From NCBI GenBank assembly GCA_947631975.1, contig CANRNM010000002.1:1-59838 (forward strand): 59,838 nucleotides of DNA, written 5' to 3'. This stretch comes from an uncultured Clostridia bacterium (GTDB taxonomy: Bacteria > Bacillota > Clostridia > Lachnospirales > CAG-274). Shown one piece after another: positions 19,994 through 50,429 of the stretch. Both the position numbers and the translations under genes were made by a program. The notes beneath the pieces are model-generated. The model ran no database searches, was not told where the DNA came from, and saw only the letters and a list, made by a program, of their open reading frames with translations. Position 1 is the stretch's first letter; each line of letters starts with the position of its first letter.

Positions 19994-21811
19994 TTAAATC
20001 GCATTGCCCTCGAACTGCGTCATGTAAAGCTCGTAATACTTGCCCTTCTTTTTTATGAGCTCCTCGTGGCTGCCCGTTTCGGCTATCCTGCCCTTGTCCA
20101 TAACGACTATGAGGTCGGCATCCTGTATGGTGGAGAGGCGGTGAGCTATTATAAGACTGGTTCTCTCCTTCATGAGGTTCACCATGGCGTTTTGTATATT
20201 CTTTTCGGTACGGGTATCGACGCTCGAAGTAGCCTCGTCGAGTATGAGTATGCTCGGGTCGGCAACAAAGGCTCGGCATATGGACAAAAGCTGTCTTTGT
20301 CCCTGCGAGAGATTTTGTCCCGCGGCGGTGAGCATGGTGTCATACTTCTTGGGAAAACGCCTTATCATATTGAAGCAGTTGCTTAGCCTTGAAGCCTTCA
20401 TTATGTCCTCATCCGTGGCGTTTTCGTTGGAATATCTTAGGTTATTCATTATGGTGTCGGAGAAAAGCACGGTGTCCTGCAAAACTATGGCTGTGCTCCG
20501 TCTAAGCTCGTCAAGCGCTATATCCTTTATGTTAACGCCGTCTATGAGTATTTCTCCGCTGTCTATATCATAAAAGCGCATGAGAAGGTTCACAACGGTG
20601 GTCTTTCCGCTGCCCGTGGCGCCTACAAGGGCTACCTTATGCCCCGCGAACACCTCCAGGTTGAAATCAAAGAGCACCTGCTTGCCCTCATGGTAGGAGA
20701 AATTGACATCCTTAAAGGTTATGACGCCCTTTGTATTCTTCATATCGTGAGTTCCCGATTTGTCCTCGCTCTGCTCGTCCATGAGCGCAAATATTCTCTC
20801 CGCGCCCGCTATGGCTGTCTGTATCTGACCGTATACCTGAGCTATCTCGTTTATGGGTCTGCCGAACTGCTTGGCATATACTATGAACGCCGAAACAACG
20901 CCTATGGAAATAATGCCCTTGAGCGCAAAAAGTCCGCCGAACGCCGCTATAATGACAAAGCCTATGTTATTTATGACATTCATTATGGGACCCATAGAAC
21001 CGCCGAGTGTCTCCGCAGCTATGCCCGTGAATGTGAGCTTATCGGAGCTTTCCTCAAACTGCGCTATGACCTCCTCCTGTCTGTTGTAGGCAACGACCGT
21101 CTTATAGCCCGTAACCTTTTCCTCGACTATGGAGTTGAGCTCTCCCAGAAGTATCTGTCTTTTAAGGAAAAACCTGCGCATTATGCCCGAAAGCACCTTT
21201 GTAACAACCACCGTGAGTATAACGGTGGTGCAGGACAAAAGCGCCAAAGATGGACAGAAGTACACCATCATAAAGACTGTGCCCGCAATGGTGAGCACGC
21301 CCGAAACAAGAGCGCCGAGCGACTGCGAAACGGTGTTTGATATGTTTTCGACATCGTTTGTCATACGGCTCATTATGTCGCCGTGGGGGTGATTGTCTAT
21401 ATATTTTATGGGAAGGTTGACTATTTTTTCAAAAAGGTCGCTCCTAAGCTTGCGCACTATCCTTTGGCTGAGCTCTGCGCTCAGTATATTCTGAAAAAGC
21501 GTAGAAAGGCTTAAAATCACATATATGCCCGCCATAGCTATGAGCACACCGCCTATATCCGAATATCTGCCCGAGGCTATGGTGTCTATAGCCTTGCTCT
21601 GGAGACCCGGAGCGGAAACCGTGCTGAGCACAACTACGACCACCACAAGCAAAAGCAGGAGCACAAGCCTTAATTCGTCCGAAAAATACTTGAGCAGGCT
21701 TTTTACCGTCTTTCCCGCGTCCGCGGGCTTTTCGGTGAGATAGTTGCGGGGTCCGCCTCTCATGCCCGGTATTTTCATATTTACCTTGGGTTTGTTGTCA
21801 ATACCGCTCAT
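19994..21811 (-). CDS. ABC exporter half-transporter, second subunit
   Basis: A 605-residue protein: N-terminal cytosolic segment, six-helix transmembrane domain (residues ~45-330) and ATPase domain (~355-600). Motifs: Walker A GATGSGKTTV, signature LSQGQRQL, Walker B ILILDEATSSVD with catalytic Glu, and switch His in IAHRLSTI. Together with the upstream gene it forms a heterodimeric type IV exporter of the BmrCD/LmrCD/TM287-288 kind, usually for drugs or peptides. The start overlaps the first gene's stop by four bases. Confidence 0.92.
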   Translation of the reverse strand: MSGIDNKPKVNMKIPGMRGGPRNYLTEKPADAGKTVKSLLKYFSDELRLVLLLLLVVVVVVLSTVSAPGLQSKAIDTIASGRYSDIGGVLIAMAGIYVILSLSTLFQNILSAELSQRIVRKLRSDLFEKIVNLPIKYIDNHPHGDIMSRMTNDVENISNTVSQSLGALVSGVLTIAGTVFMMVYFCPSLALLSCTTVILTVVVTKVLSGIMRRFFLKRQILLGELNSIVEEKVTGYKTVVAYNRQEEVIAQFEESSDKLTFTGIAAETLGGSMGPIMNVINNIGFVIIAAFGGLFALKGIISIGVVSAFIVYAKQFGRPINEIAQVYGQIQTAIAGAERIFALMDEQSEDKSGTHDMKNTKGVITFKDVNFSYHEGKQVLFDFNLEVFAGHKVALVGATGSGKTTVVNLLMRFYDIDSGEILIDGVNIKDIALDELRRSTAIVLQDTVLFSDTIMNNLRYSNENATDEDIMKASRLSNCFNMIRRFPKKYDTMLTAAGQNLSQGQRQLLSICRAFVADPSILILDEATSSVDTRTEKNIQNAMVNLMKERTSLIIAHRLSTIQDADLIVVMDKGRIAETGSHEELIKKKGKYYELYMTQFEGNAI

Positions 21812-23547
21812 TGTGCGTCACCTCCGCCCTTAAGCTGGGATTCGTATATATCCCTGTATATATCGCAGCTTTCCATAAGCTTTTCATGGCTGCCGCAGTC
21901 CACAATGCTGCCGTTGTCTATAACGGCTATCCTGTCGGCGCCCTTTACGGAAGCTATACGCTGAGCTATTATTATCTTTGTGGTGCTGTCATACTTTGTG
22001 TTGAGAGCCTTATAGAGTTTTGCCTCGGTCTTGAGGTCGAGGGCGCTCGTGGAGTCGTCAAATATGAGTATCTCGGCATTTTTCAAAAGCGCTCTGGCTA
22101 TAGCCACTCTCTGCTTCTGTCCGCCCGAAAGGCTCATGCCCTTTTCCGCAACGGCAGTATCAAGTCCCTCGGACTTGTCGGCTATGAACTCCATAGCCTG
22201 CGCGTCCTCCGCAGCCGCCGTTATTTCTTCGGCTGAGGCGTTTTCCTTGCCCCACATTATGTTCTCGCCTATTGTGGTATTGAAAAGCTCGCTTTTCTGC
22301 AGGGCGACGGCTATTTTATCCCTTAAGTCCTTAAGGGCGTATTCTCTTACATCAATATTGTCAACGAGCACGCTGCCCTCCGTTGCGTCATAAAAACGGG
22401 GTATGAGGTTTATAAGCGTGGACTTTCCGCTGCCCGTTGCGCCCAGTATGCCGAAGGTCTCGCCCGGCTCTATGGTTATGTTTATATTGTCAAGCACAAG
22501 CTCGCCGTTTCCTCCGGGATAGGCAAAGGACACATTTCTGAACTCTATCCTGCCCTTTACATCGCTTTGAACGGCGGAGCTTCCGTCCTTTATGACGGGA
22601 GCCTCCCTAAGTATTTCGTTAAGTCGTCTGCCCGAGGCGGTACCTCTCGAAACGGTCTGGAATATCATGGCAAGCATGATTACGGAGTGCATTATGCGCG
22701 AAAGATATGTAACGGCAGCCATTATTGCGCCGGGTGTGGCATTGCCCGCCTGAACCTCTATTGCGCCCATTTTTATGATGACGACAAGCGCCATATTCAA
22801 AATGATGTTTGCAAGGGGCGTCATAAAGGCAAAAAGCCTTAACACCCTTAACTGCGTGTTCACAAGCTCATCGTTGGCATTGCCGAAGCGGTTTATTTCA
22901 AAATCCTCCTTTACATATGCCTTAACGACTCTTGCGCCCGCAACATTTTCCTGTACCACATTGTTTACATTGTCGAGCTTTCTCTGGAGGGTGTCAAAGA
23001 ACGGATTAGCCTTTGAAATGAAGAAAAGCACTCCTATTATGACTACGGGAAGAGTGCACAAGAGCACCTCGCCGAAGCGAAGATCGAGCGTCCACACGCA
23101 GAATATACCGCCGAAGAAAAGCATCGTGGTGCGGACAAAGCCTCTCACGCTCTGCGTGGCAAGATTTTGGAGCTGTGTAACATCGTTTGTTATTCTGGTA
23201 ATAAGAGAGCCCGTTGAAAATTTATCCGTCTGCTCGAACGAAAACTCCATAACGCGCCTGAAGCAAGCCTTCCTTATGGCGTTTGCCCAGTTTTGGCTGA
23301 ACATATTGGCAAACACGCCCGAAAGCACTCCCGACAGACCGCCCAGTATGACTACGAATATCATTTTAAGTCCCATGGACATAACAAGCTCCATGTTGCC
23401 CGTGCCGCCGTTATTGAGTCCCAAAACGCCGTCGTCAACTATGACCTGCATCATCTTGGGCTGAACGAGATCCATCGTTACCTCGCCTATCATAAAGAGA
23501 GGAGCAAGAAGCACAAATATCCAATATTTTTTTAACAGTTTAAACAT
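21808..23547 (-). CDS. ABC exporter half-transporter, first subunit (degenerate site)
   Basis: A 579-residue half-transporter with a six-helix membrane domain (residues ~10-310) and ATPase (~335-575). Walker A is GATGSGKSTL and the signature is LSGGQKQR. Walker B reads ILIFDDSTSALD with Asp replacing the catalytic Glu, and the switch region reads IIIAQRIASV with Gln in place of His. This is the usual composition of the catalytically impaired site of heterodimeric exporters. GGAGGAG precedes the ATG. An unusual 357-base hairpin-rich region lies upstream. Confidence 0.92.
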   Translation of the reverse strand: MFKLLKKYWIFVLLAPLFMIGEVTMDLVQPKMMQVIVDDGVLGLNNGGTGNMELVMSMGLKMIFVVILGGLSGVLSGVFANMFSQNWANAIRKACFRRVMEFSFEQTDKFSTGSLITRITNDVTQLQNLATQSVRGFVRTTMLFFGGIFCVWTLDLRFGEVLLCTLPVVIIGVLFFISKANPFFDTLQRKLDNVNNVVQENVAGARVVKAYVKEDFEINRFGNANDELVNTQLRVLRLFAFMTPLANIILNMALVVIIKMGAIEVQAGNATPGAIMAAVTYLSRIMHSVIMLAMIFQTVSRGTASGRRLNEILREAPVIKDGSSAVQSDVKGRIEFRNVSFAYPGGNGELVLDNINITIEPGETFGILGATGSGKSTLINLIPRFYDATEGSVLVDNIDVREYALKDLRDKIAVALQKSELFNTTIGENIMWGKENASAEEITAAAEDAQAMEFIADKSEGLDTAVAEKGMSLSGGQKQRVAIARALLKNAEILIFDDSTSALDLKTEAKLYKALNTKYDSTTKIIIAQRIASVKGADRIAVIDNGSIVDCGSHEKLMESCDIYRDIYESQLKGGGDAQ

Positions 23548-23571: not shown

Positions 23572-23864
23572 TAGGGGATGTCATGATGAACATCCCCATG
23601 AGCGTGTCGATAAAATCGACACGCTTGAAAGAAATGCTTGCATTTCTTTCAGTTAGGCTAATGTAGGAACCAGCCGTGTTTTCCGCAATTTTGGCATAAA
23701 TGCCAAAATTACAGAAAAGTTCCTGTCCTCAGGCGGGCAAAGCTCGCCTTGCGGATTTTAGTCTGCGACGCTTTTTGGGTCGTACTGACTATTCAGTCTT
23801 TCATTTTTTGTGTCAATTTATACTTTTTCGACAGTCTGTAGGGGATGTCATGATGAACATCCCC
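23572..23864. mobile_element. MITE-like hairpin cassette flanked by a 26-bp direct repeat
   Basis: The 357-base gap between glgB and the ABC operon holds this element. A 26-bp sequence (TAGGGGATG...CATCCCC, itself a hairpin) occurs identically at 23572-23597 and 23839-23864. Between the copies is a 241-base unit whose ends contain TGTCGATAAA (23605-23614) and TTTTTCGACA (23824-23833). Inside are perfect 10-bp hairpins at 23602-23624, 23627-23650 and 23687-23710, and an 8-bp one at about 23731-23749. On the minus strand the unit starts CAGACTGTCGAAAAAGT, identical to the first 17 bases of the insertion at 45164, and shares its other end TTTATCGACACGC. No protein is encoded. In the ABC transcript the last hairpin is followed by TATTTTTA. 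Confidence 0.75.
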
Positions 23865-23904: not shown

Positions 23905-26118
23905 TTATTCATCTATACACTTGAATATAGTAACGGAAAGAGGCGCAAGCCTTAAGCCTATGCTGTTTTCTCTATGGTTGCACTCTATCTTTTCGGACTT
24001 GGCAGGAATGGTATTCACAACGCCGCTGCCGCCGAAGCGTGTATCGTCGCTGTTGAGTATTTCCTTCCATGTGCCCTCGAAGGGTACGGCAACTCTGAAG
24101 CTCTCATCCGCATTGGGAGTGAAGTTGCATATAACGACAAGGGTATCTTCCTTTGTGTTGCCTCTCCTTATGAATGAATAAATGCTCCTGTCCTTATCGT
24201 CGGCGTCTATCCACTCGAAGCCGAAGCCCTCGTAGTCCTTCTCCCAGAGACCGCCGTTTTCAAGATAGAGATGATTAAGCTCCTTAACGAAGTCGAGCAT
24301 CTGCTGATGGTGGTCGTACTCCAGAAGGAACCAGTCGAGAGGTCTCTTTTCGTTCCACTCTATGAACTGACCGAATTCTCCGCCCATGAAAAGAAGCTTC
24401 TTGCCCGGGTGAGTCATGGCAAAGCCGTAAGCCGCCCTTAAATTTGCAAACTTCTGCCAGAGGTCGCCCGGCATCTTGTCAAGCATAGACTTCTTGCCGT
24501 GCACTACCTCGTCGTGGCTCAAAACGAGAACGAATTTCTCGCTGTAAGCGTAGGTGGAGGCAAAGGTCATATTGTAGTGATGATATTTCTTATATATGGG
24601 GTCAAGCTCAACATACTCGAGAAAGTCGTTCATCCAGCCCATATTCCACTTGAGAGTGAAGCCCAGTCCGTCGTCCTGCGCGGGAGTGGTAACTCCGGGC
24701 CAGGATGTGGATTCCTCGGCTATCATATGAACCTTGGGGTGTCTGCCCGTTATGACGGAATTCATATGCTTCATAAATTCCACTGCGGCAAGGTTTTCTC
24801 TTCCGCCGTATTCATTGGGCACCCACTCGCCCTCGTTCTTGCAGTAGTCAAGATAGAGCATAGAAGCAACGGCGTCAACTCTGAGTCCGTCGATATGGAA
24901 ACGCTCTATCCAATAGAGAGCGTTGCCTATGAGGAAGTTCTTTACTTCGTTTCTGCCGTAGTTGAATATAAGCGTGCCCCACTCGGGATGCTCGCCCTGC
25001 TTGGGATCCTCGTGCTCGTAGAGCGCTGTACCGTCAAAGCGCGCAAGTCCGTGGGCGTCCTTCGGGAAGTGAGCGGGGACCCAGTCGAGTATAACGCCTA
25101 TGCCCGCCTGGTGGCACTTGTCCACAAAGTCCATAAATTCGCCCGGATTGCCGTAACGGCTGGTGGGAGCGTAATAGCCCGTTACCTGATAGCCCCAGCT
25201 GCCGTCAAAGGGGTGCTCCTCAATGGGAAGTATCTCAATGTGAGTATAGCCCATTTCCTTTACATAGGGTATGAGCTCCTTCGCAAGCTCGGGATAGCTT
25301 AAAAATCTGTTGTTGTCGCTTTCAACTCTCTTCCATGAGCCGAGATGTACCTCGTAAATATTCATGGGCACATTGTACATATCCGACTTTTCAAGGTGCT
25401 TGTACCACTTGGAGTCCTTCCACTTATGCTTGTTGATATCGTATATAAGCGAGGTGGTGCTGGGTCTTAGCTCAGCAAACTTTGCGTAGGGGTCGGACTT
25501 CTGTATAAGGTCGCCCGTAGACGTCTTTATTTCAAACTTATAGCCGTCGCAGTCCTGCAAGCCGGGAATGAATATCTCCCATATGCCCGAGCCCGCAAGC
25601 AGACGCATGGCGTTCCTTCTGCCGTCCCAGTTGTTGAAGCTTCCTATAACGCTGACTCTCTTGGCATTGGGAGCCCACACTCCGAAAAGCACGCCCTCTA
25701 CGCCGTCCATTACCATGGGATTGGCGCCGAGCTTTTCATATATCTGATAGTGAGTACCCTGGTTGAAAAGGTAGATATCCTGCTCGCCTATGCCGGGAGA
25801 GAATGAATAAGGATCGTATGTCGTCCAGTCGTTGCCCTCGTAGTCCTCAATATGGAGCTGATATCTGAACCATTTTTTCCTTGTCTTTATAACGCACTCA
25901 AAAAAGCCGTCGTCGTGTATCTTTTCCATTTCAAATACCTTGTCGGGCTTTTTGGGGTCTATGACCGTTATAGACTTTGCCTGCGGTATAAATGCCCTCA
26001 CCACAAGGCACGGCTTGTCGTCGAGCGTTACCTCGTGCATACCCAGAACCGTGTGCGGGTCGCCGTGAGACGCGCTTATTATGAGCTGCATTTCCATCAT
26101 ATTAACTGTTGTTAGCAT
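23905..26118 (-). CDS. glgB: 1,4-alpha-glucan branching enzyme
   Basis: A 737-residue GH13 branching enzyme for glycogen. N-terminal CBM48 modules (HTVLGMHEV; VLFGVWAPNAKRVSVIGSFN near residue 145) precede the barrel with its four conserved regions: DWVPAHF, GLRVDAVASMLYLDY (nucleophile Asp near residue 410), MIAEEST (acid/base Glu) and VLSHDEVVHGK. Length is typical for the longer GlgB type. The ATG at 26118 is chosen over a GTG six bases earlier because AAGGGA fits its distance better. No other glycogen genes are adjacent. Confidence 0.95.
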   Translation of the reverse strand: MLTTVNMMEMQLIISASHGDPHTVLGMHEVTLDDKPCLVVRAFIPQAKSITVIDPKKPDKVFEMEKIHDDGFFECVIKTRKKWFRYQLHIEDYEGNDWTTYDPYSFSPGIGEQDIYLFNQGTHYQIYEKLGANPMVMDGVEGVLFGVWAPNAKRVSVIGSFNNWDGRRNAMRLLAGSGIWEIFIPGLQDCDGYKFEIKTSTGDLIQKSDPYAKFAELRPSTTSLIYDINKHKWKDSKWYKHLEKSDMYNVPMNIYEVHLGSWKRVESDNNRFLSYPELAKELIPYVKEMGYTHIEILPIEEHPFDGSWGYQVTGYYAPTSRYGNPGEFMDFVDKCHQAGIGVILDWVPAHFPKDAHGLARFDGTALYEHEDPKQGEHPEWGTLIFNYGRNEVKNFLIGNALYWIERFHIDGLRVDAVASMLYLDYCKNEGEWVPNEYGGRENLAAVEFMKHMNSVITGRHPKVHMIAEESTSWPGVTTPAQDDGLGFTLKWNMGWMNDFLEYVELDPIYKKYHHYNMTFASTYAYSEKFVLVLSHDEVVHGKKSMLDKMPGDLWQKFANLRAAYGFAMTHPGKKLLFMGGEFGQFIEWNEKRPLDWFLLEYDHHQQMLDFVKELNHLYLENGGLWEKDYEGFGFEWIDADDKDRSIYSFIRRGNTKEDTLVVICNFTPNADESFRVAVPFEGTWKEILNSDDTRFGGSGVVNTIPAKSEKIECNHRENSIGLRLAPLSVTIFKCIDE

Positions 26119-26267
26119 ATACACACATCCCTTCTCTTATTTATTATAATATATATACTTACTTTTATTATAAACTATAATTCCAAATAATGCTAGTACA
26201 AAAACATAAATTTTTATATATTTCCAAAATTTATATGAAAACTCGTAAAAAAATTTATTAAAAACTA

Positions 26268-44401: not shown

Positions 44402-45010
44402 ATGGCTAAGACCAAGAGACATGAGCTTGCAAAGTGGGTGCTGGCGGCAGACTTAGGCGGCATAAGCGCCGTGCTTATGCTTCTGGAGTTTAATGTGCCG
44501 TTTACGCCTTCTTTTCTGAAGCTGGATCTTTCCGACCTTGCAGTCGTGCTGGGAGGACTTATAATAGGACCGCTTCAGGGCGTATTCATAGCGCTTGTGA
44601 AAGTTACGATACATCTTCTTCTGAAAGGCTCCGCAACGGGCGGAGTAGGTGAGCTGGCAAATGTGATAAACAGCCTTTGCTATATGCTCACGACGGTATT
44701 CATATATAAAAAGACGCGCACAAGGCTCGGCGGACACACGGGACTTATAGCCGGCACTGTGGTTACAAGCATTGCAGCCACGGTAGTCAACTATTTTGTC
44801 ATTTTTCCTATATATCAGCTAAGGATGGGATATTCCGCAGAAGCGCTGGTGAGCCTAAGCGCAAGTGTAAATCCTTATATAACAAGCCTCGGCGGTCTGG
44901 CAATAGCCGCCGTGCTGCCGTTTAATATGTTCAAGTATATACTCATATCGTTTATAACGGGACTGCTTTATAGGAGGCTTAATTTGTTTGTGAGGAAGTA
45001 CATATATTGA
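44402..45010 (+). CDS. ECF transporter S component, RibU-like
   Basis: A 202-residue integral membrane protein with about six helices. The segment PSFLKLDLSDLAVVLGGLIIGP matches the substrate-loop region of riboflavin-type S components, followed by LVKVTIHLLLKGSATGGVGELAN. It would bind a vitamin outside the cell and pair with a shared EcfAA'T module encoded elsewhere. No FMN riboswitch is seen upstream; instead it is coupled to a secreted protein. The TGA stop (45008-45010) borrows two bases from the left end of the mobile element starting at 45009, so the C-terminus may have been altered by that insertion. Confidence 0.83.
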   Translation: MAKTKRHELAKWVLAADLGGISAVLMLLEFNVPFTPSFLKLDLSDLAVVLGGLIIGPLQGVFIALVKVTIHLLLKGSATGGVGELANVINSLCYMLTTVFIYKKTRTRLGGHTGLIAGTVVTSIAATVVNYFVIFPIYQLRMGYSAEALVSLSASVNPYITSLGGLAIAAVLPFNMFKYILISFITGLLYRRLNLFVRKYIY

Positions 45011-45392
45011 CCCTTCCACCGTCTAACGACGGTCCCCCTTCCCTTAGCCCTGACGGGCTAAAGGACGGCTTACCTAGCAGTAAAATTATTTTGCCCGGAG
45101 GGCGCAACACTATAAGGCGTCCTTGCGAAGCAGGGAAGCTGTCAGCCATAATAATGGCTGACTCAGACTGTCGAAAAAGTCAAAATATAAAAAATGTTAT
45201 AAAACGGGCGTGCAATGGCTGGTCGCAACACTTCGTGTTGCTGTTCGCCCATGCAACCAAGGCACGCCCCTACAAACCACAATGTGAGCTAGTCACTCGT
45301 AGGGGCGAGCATTGCTCGCCCGCAAAATTTCATACAATAAGGTTGTTTATCGACACGCAATGTCAGCCATAATAATGGCTGACTGAAGGGTA
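45009..45392. mobile_element. MITE-like element (GACCCTTC ends) carrying a nested insertion
   Basis: The 432-base gap 45011-45442 is filled by this element. It starts GACCCTTCC and ends GAAGGGT, as does the element at 48664-48841. Shared internal segments include CTTCCCTTAGCCCT, ATAAGGCGTCCTTGCGAAGC and the hairpin GTCAGCCA...TGGCTGAC. All parts fold into stems and there is no ORF. Compared with the 48.7 kb copy, an extra 221 bases are present near the right end (see 45140-45384). Confidence 0.75.
45140..45384. mobile_element. Nested cassette flanked by a 24-bp direct repeat
   Basis: A 24-bp sequence beginning TGTCAGCCA and ending TGGCTGACT occurs identically at 45140-45163 and 45361-45384. 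Between them, 45164-45360 starts CAGACTGTCGAAAAAGT and ends TTTATCGACACGCAA. These ends are shared with the cassette at 23.6 kb, but the interior differs: here it is a pair of GGGCGnGCA palindromes (45205-45273 and 45299-45322) in inverted orientation around a 25-base centre. The left palindrome itself holds a 48-base loop insertion at 45214-45261. Confidence 0.75.
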
Positions 45393-45413
45393 AAAAATAA
45401 TTTATCAACAAGT

Positions 45414-50025: not shown

Positions 50026-50159
50026 AATTTTCAACTCCTCTTTCAAAAATGCACGCCCTTTTCTTTCTATATATTTCATTATATATAAAAATATACATAA
50101 TGTCAATTATACATAACAGAATATGGAAAAATAATAATTGATAAGCAAGACTTGCACAA

Positions 50160-50394
50160 ACTGTCGAAAAAGTCAAAATATAAAAAATGTTATATACGGG
50201 CGTGCAATGCACGCCCCTACAAACCACAATGTGAGCTAATCACTCGTAGGGGCGTGCCTTGGTTGCATGGGCGAGCAGTAATATTGTACCGAAAGATTTA
50301 TCGGACGTCTGAAAGACGGTTTTCGGCTCCGCCGAAAATACTGAACAAAGCAATACGACCCAGCCATTGCTCGCCCGCAAAATTTCATACAATA
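50160..50394. repeat. Palindrome-bounded element with nested loop insertion
   Basis: The 466-base gap 50026-50491 contains this element and the ddl promoter. It starts ACTGTCGAAAAAGTC like the cassette at 45 kb and ends CGCAAAATTTCATACAATAA. Left palindrome at 50197-50220 is intact, the 25-base centre is 50221-50245, and the right palindrome (50246-50377) is opened by a 111-base insertion (50258-50368) full of smaller stems (CGTCT-GAA-AGACG; TTTTCGGC-TCC-GCCGAAAA). The arms of this palindrome are of two types (GCGTGC and GCTCGC), so it is chimeric. Confidence 0.75.
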
Positions 50395-50429
50395 ATGTGT
50401 ATGTTTTAACGATAATATAAAAATTTATC

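What the first reader, a model, noticed from the sequence alone, without database searches (positions are those of the whole stretch)
23572..23864. Second cassette with the same ends, different cargo and a different duplicated hairpin
On the minus strand the unit at 23598-23838 begins CAGACTGTCGAAAAAGT and ends near TTTATCGACACGC, the same ends as the 45 kb cassette. Its interior is unrelated: a row of perfect 10-bp hairpins. It is flanked by an exact 26-bp direct repeat (23572-23597, 23839-23864), again a hairpin, but with another sequence. Two independent loci with shared ends, swapped cargo and duplicated hairpin targets suggest a family of non-autonomous mobile cassettes whose passengers are hairpins.
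Basis: partly seen in the sequence, partly recalled or inferred. Interest (0 to 1): 0.75.

Follow-up and report, generated by a model that had tools for sequence, protein, structure and literature searches.

The report
Terminator-hunting mini-transposon carrying structured RNA
The sequence is one of about 60 tiny non-coding jumping elements in this bacterium that insert into the hairpins ending genes' transcripts and copy the whole hairpin on both sides; one class carries a conserved folded-RNA-like sequence that matches nothing in the reference RNA library.

Summary
CAGACTGTCGAAAAAGT occurs about 60 times in this 2.0-Mb genome, with at least four unrelated interiors between shared ends. These are MITE-like elements. 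Their ends match those of IS1182-family insertion sequences in relatives; no transposase was found in the window's own incomplete assembly.

The "duplicated hairpin" is the target site duplication. Each insertion lands on an intrinsic-terminator-like hairpin and duplicates the whole hairpin. Of 91 duplications, 84 are stem-loops; 75 of those are centred within 1 nt of the dyad; length (18-44 nt) follows hairpin size. Empty sites exist in sister species, including a single-copy hairpin at the 23.6-kb locus. Seven autonomous IS1182-family relatives from other bacteria show the same whole-hairpin duplication.

The known hairpin-targeting member, IS1272, deletes its target instead. Whole-hairpin duplication has been drawn as a hypothetical pathway (PMC5678879); I found no described case in the papers searched.

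The window's element belongs to a class whose ~172-nt interior is found in 36 of 48 genomes of the family. It covaries strongly, prefers G.U over A.C on one strand, and has no Rfam match. It looks like a conserved structured RNA; its function is unknown.

The parts
23839..23864 (-). Target site duplication, copy next to the left end: terminator-like hairpin GGGGATGTTCATCATGACATCCCCTA
   Evidence: exact 26-bp direct repeat; hairpin and terminator scan; single copy in sister species G006
23572..23597 (-). Target site duplication, copy next to the right end; keeps the T-tract (TATTTTT), so it is the copy that still looks like a terminator on the minus strand
23598..23838 (-). Non-autonomous element, class A, 241 nt
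   Evidence: shared ends in about 60 genomic copies
23822..23838 (-). Left end CAGACTGTCGAAAAAGT (terminal inverted repeat)
23598..23615 (-). Right end TTTTATCGACACGC plus 4 nt (TCAT; usually AG or TG); imperfect inverted repeat of the left end, itself the 3' arm of a terminal hairpin
23602..23773 (-). Structured class-A core (covariance model R1 full-length match, 192 bits)
23788..23816 (-). Promoter-like sequence TTGACA-17-AATAGT upstream of the core; seen in the window's own genus, not general
45164..45360 (+). Second element in the window, class C, same ends
45140..45163 (+). Target site duplication (left) of the 45-kb element: hairpin TGTCAGCCATAATAATGGCTGACT
45361..45384 (+). Target site duplication (right) of the 45-kb element
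45010..45412 (+). Older class-B element remnant into whose internal hairpin the 45-kb element is nested (approximate limits)
   Evidence: class-B sequence on both sides; un-nested class-B copy at the same locus in G005
50157..50400 (+). Decayed class-C copy, right end and duplication lost (approximate right limit)

Best explanation
This is a MITE-like non-autonomous transposable element. It is mobilised in trans by an IS1182-family DDE transposase (partner inferred from shared ends) that recognises its target by hairpin shape rather than by sequence. The two element ends are joined at the two feet of the hairpin, one on each strand. Gap repair then copies the whole stem-loop to both sides. Shown: about 60 copies with shared ends, whole-hairpin duplication, empty sites, nested insertions, and autonomous IS1182-family elements with the same kind of ends and duplications. 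Inferred: cruciform or structure recognition, chemistry at the hairpin feet, and activity in trans. The likely benefit (inference) is a safe landing place, since the insertion is outside genes and each side keeps a complete hairpin. The class-A interior in this copy is under selection for a strand-specific fold, most simply a non-coding RNA; its role is not established.
For: Left end about 60 times, backward control 0-1. 91 duplications: 84 stem-loops, 75 dyad-centred within 1 nt, 18-44 nt, Spearman 0.66 with stem-loop span, p 1e-11; random windows give 0.4-0.6%. Empty sites in G005 and G006 and three independent insertions at one terminator in three species. Autonomous IS1182-family relatives with 24-34 nt whole-hairpin duplications in seven genomes (family). 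In G005:C6 the MITE-type left end is followed by a frame whose first 22 residues are 86% identical to the L124 IS1182-family transposase. Only 2 of 80 copies lie between divergent genes. Fold of class A: 36 of 44 pairs with changes on both sides, 98.5% paired against 37-53% when slid; G.U 50 against A.C 4.
Against: No transposase was found in the window's own assembly; it is fragmented at these repeats, so absence is weak evidence. The one intact IS1182-family copy found in the window's own family (L127) shows no clear duplication of its own. TSD boundaries can shift by 1-3 nt in A/T tracts. The own-promoter idea for the class-A RNA holds only in the home genus. Hairpin recognition has not been shown biochemically.
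Confidence: 0.87

Rival explanations
1. The elements are moved by a transposase with a fixed long stagger (IS1202-type, 16-28 bp duplications) and merely happen to prefer terminators.
For: IS1202-group elements have 16-28 bp duplications (PMC10132070).
Against: Relatives with matching ends encode an IS1182-family transposase far above cut-off, while the ISNCY model scores 82 bits against a 325 cut-off. Duplication length runs from 18 to 44 nt and follows hairpin size.
Confidence: 0.04
2. IS1182-family mobilisation is right, but the target is the terminator in action (transcription complex or R-loop) rather than an extruded DNA hairpin.
For: Insertions sit at terminator-like sites and almost never between divergent genes.
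Against: Internal hairpins of older elements, without a T-tract, are also targets (45-kb copy, L103). Copies are found in both orientations between co-directional genes (26 and 23).
Confidence: 0.15
3. The fixed-leader view: the 23.6-kb unit is a conserved regulatory leader or attenuator of the ABC-transporter gene downstream.
For: It lies between glgB and an ABC transporter gene and is strongly structured.
Against: Absent at the same hairpin in G006, which instead has an insertion in a neighbouring hairpin; the same core sits beside unrelated genes in tens of places.
Confidence: 0.02
4. The class-A pairing is kept for a DNA-level reason (cruciform or single-stranded DNA, for example transposase binding or decoy targets), not as RNA.
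For: Hairpins are targets for further insertions; most insertion sites are hairpins; no general promoter was found.
Against: G.U outnumbers A.C 50 to 4 on one strand, which double-stranded cruciform selection would not give; unpaired linkers are also highly conserved.
Confidence: 0.3

Closest known systems
IS1272 / TnSha1 (IS1182 family)
   Same: Same transposase family; targets hairpins, often terminators, by shape (PMC4923244, PMC5678879).
   Different: IS1272 removes part or all of the stem-loop and makes no duplication; here the complete stem-loop is duplicated, the outcome drawn as hypothetical pathway b in PMC5678879 Fig 13.
MITEPye1 (IS1182-related MITE, Paracoccus yeei)
   Same: Non-autonomous element with IS1182-type ends, intergenic, folds into long stem-loops (PMC11578231).
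   Different: 4-bp duplications, 1-3 copies in a genome; no whole-hairpin duplication in the passages read.
IS1202 family
   Same: Long duplications (16-28 bp).
   Different: Different transposase family; targets of the long-duplication group were not identified (PMC10132070).
CRISPR spacer acquisition by Cas1-Cas2 (own knowledge)
   Same: Insertion at the two edges of a hairpin-forming repeat duplicates the whole repeat.
   Different: Different enzyme, fixed repeat, no element ends; analogy only.

Membership tests
IS1182-family MITE | Terminal inverted repeats shared with an IS1182-family element | tested here: met
   CAG(A/C)(C/G)TGTCGA(A/T)AAA at both ends; same left end before IS1182-family frames in relatives
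IS1182-family MITE | Target site duplication | tested here: met
   91 duplications
IS1182-family MITE | No transposase gene in the element | tested here: met
   241 nt; no ORF of 90 aa or more lies within it
IS1182-family MITE | Transposase present in the same genome | tested here: inconclusive
   none in the fragmented own assembly; IS left ends at contig ends in G005 and G006
IS1182-family MITE | Mobilised in trans by that transposase | not testable with these tools
   needs a transposition assay
IS1272-type stem-loop replacement | Target stem-loop deleted, no duplication | tested here: not met
   stem-loop present twice at insertions and once at empty sites
IS1202 family | IS1202/ISNCY-type transposase | tested here: not met
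   partner transposase is NF033551 IS1182 (400 bits); ISNCY_1 82 bits, cut-off 325
Known Rfam RNA family | Match at gathering score | tested here: not met
   no match for the window or 19 diverse loci; loose search gave only weak matches
CRISPR/casposon integration | Cas1-type integrase | not tested
   no search made

The most novel reading that the evidence does not exclude
Class-A elements are mobile genes for an undescribed structured non-coding RNA, spread through part of a bacterial order by hairpin-directed IS1182-family transposition, with the RNA needed either for the element's movement (for example by interacting with transposase or target) or for a host function.
Probability: 0.35. 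Interest if true: 0.85.

Novelty: new variant of a known kind. Interest (0 to 1): 0.66.

Why it matters
DDE elements are usually thought to make a duplication of fixed length. Here its length appears to be set by the target hairpin, which would make hairpin-shaped target recognition directly testable and supply the missing counterpart to IS1272's hairpin deletion. It also explains tens of intergenic repeats in each genome of this family, shows terminators as a shared landing place for selfish DNA, and uncovers a covarying fold absent from Rfam.

Tried and rejected
IS1202 as mobiliser: rejected on transposase family. Class-A orientation: a small sample suggested the RNA strand runs against neighbouring genes (21 to 5); 92 copies show no bias (26 to 23), so it was dropped. 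A general own promoter for the class-A RNA: not above shuffles across genera. Rfam identity: none. Literature searches for terminator or hairpin duplication by insertion sequences gave no described case; this covers only the open library searched.

Full report
Observation. The unit, its 26-bp exact flanking repeat and the ends it shares with the 45-kb unit are all present as described. The repeat is a hairpin with a terminator-like tail on the minus strand. The unit lies between glgB (23905-26124, -) and an ABC transporter gene (21808-23547, -).

Copy number. The left end occurs 62 times in the 2,018,756-base assembly with up to two mismatches, 27 of them exact; the backward control gives 0 and 1. 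A few of the two-mismatch matches are probably not elements (for example L051, L054). Many copies sit at contig ends, as expected for repeats that break an assembly. By interior, the copies fall into class B (31), C (13), A (9), D (5) and others (4). The window element is class A and the 45-kb element is class C.

Target. In resolved copies the sequence before the left end is repeated after the right end. Pooling copies from several genera with seven autonomous elements gives 91 duplications. Of these, 84 contain a stem-loop above the threshold, the dyad lies within 1 nt of the centre of the duplication in 75, lengths run from 18 to 44 nt, and length correlates with stem-loop span (Spearman 0.66). 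Random places give a centred stem-loop in 0.4-0.6%. In a first set of 52, either the A-side or the T-side flank was tract-like in 42. Among 80 class-A copies with both neighbours called, only 2 lie between divergent genes. The gene calls there are simple longest ORFs.

Empty sites. At the L003 site, G005 has a single terminator hairpin and no element. At the L044 site, where the window genome has two elements in opposite orientation, G005 has one hairpin. One terminator (L050) carries separate insertions in three species. At the 23.6-kb locus, G006 has a single copy of GGGGATGTTCATCATGACATCCCC and a different insertion in a neighbouring hairpin. The 45-kb element is nested in a hairpin of an older class-B element, which G005 carries without the nested copy.

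Mobiliser. In G005 the MITE-type left end runs into a promoter-like region and a start codon (L099). Related left ends in other genera precede frames of the IS1182 family. A collection search with the L127 transposase gave 17 loci. Seven (L191, L192, L193, L198, L199, L200, L203) have CAGACTG-type ends and exact 24-34 nt duplications that are whole hairpins. No transposase was found in the window's own assembly. The partner is therefore inferred from shared ends.

Mechanism. The simplest reading is that each 3' end of the element is joined to one foot of the hairpin, on opposite strands, and that repair duplicates the stem-loop. PMC5678879 drew this as hypothetical pathway b while describing IS1272, which instead replaces the stem-loop (also PMC4923244). 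A consequence is that both sides keep a complete hairpin. That termination is preserved is inference.

Class-A interior. The core folds well (z -9.0 for the whole unit). In 15 copies from the genus, 13 of 44 pairs show changes on both sides. The covariance model matches 36 of 48 genomes in the family, up to 56 copies in one genome, and 45 of 246 genomes sampled in the order. On 32 distinct diverse sequences, 36 of 44 pairs have two-sided changes and 98.5% of cells pair, against 80.4% shuffled and 37-53% slid. That alignment is fitted to the model, so the slid control matters most. On the modelled strand G.U pairs outnumber A.C 50 to 4, which points to RNA, or at least to one single strand. No Rfam family matches. 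A promoter-like TTGACA-17-AATAGT precedes the core here, but this does not generalise. Some distant copies (for example L219, L220, L235) lack clear element ends.

Novelty. Hairpin targeting by the IS1182 family and IS1182-linked MITEs are both known (PMC4923244, PMC5678879, PMC11578231). Whole-hairpin duplication of hairpin-set length, the scale of the family, and the covarying interior are the new parts, as far as the open literature searched shows. Hence a new variant of a known kind.

Noticed in passing
L044 (G000:C91:1-1200): Two elements in opposite orientation inserted at the same terminator; the site is empty in G005.
   Followed up: partly
L050, L105, L180: The same terminator carries independent insertions of different classes or orientations in three sister species.
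   Followed up: partly
L129, L139 (G008): IS1182-family copies inserted at the terminal hairpin of class-A elements, so the elements' own hairpins are targets.
   Followed up: no
classes B, C and D in G000 (for example L017, L012, L003): These interiors also fold better than shuffles (z -6.8, -4.7, -4.2, one example each, mononucleotide shuffles); their covariation was not tested.
   Followed up: partly
L241 (G015:C7:25167-27741): Longest duplication seen, 44 nt, again a whole hairpin.
   Followed up: no
L219, L220, L223, L235: Class-A cores in distant genera without recognisable element ends or duplications; they may be decayed or non-mobile copies.
   Followed up: no
L029 (G000:C10:30150): Left end followed within about 60 nt by unrelated sequence with a short reading frame; a chimeric or interrupted copy.
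   Followed up: no
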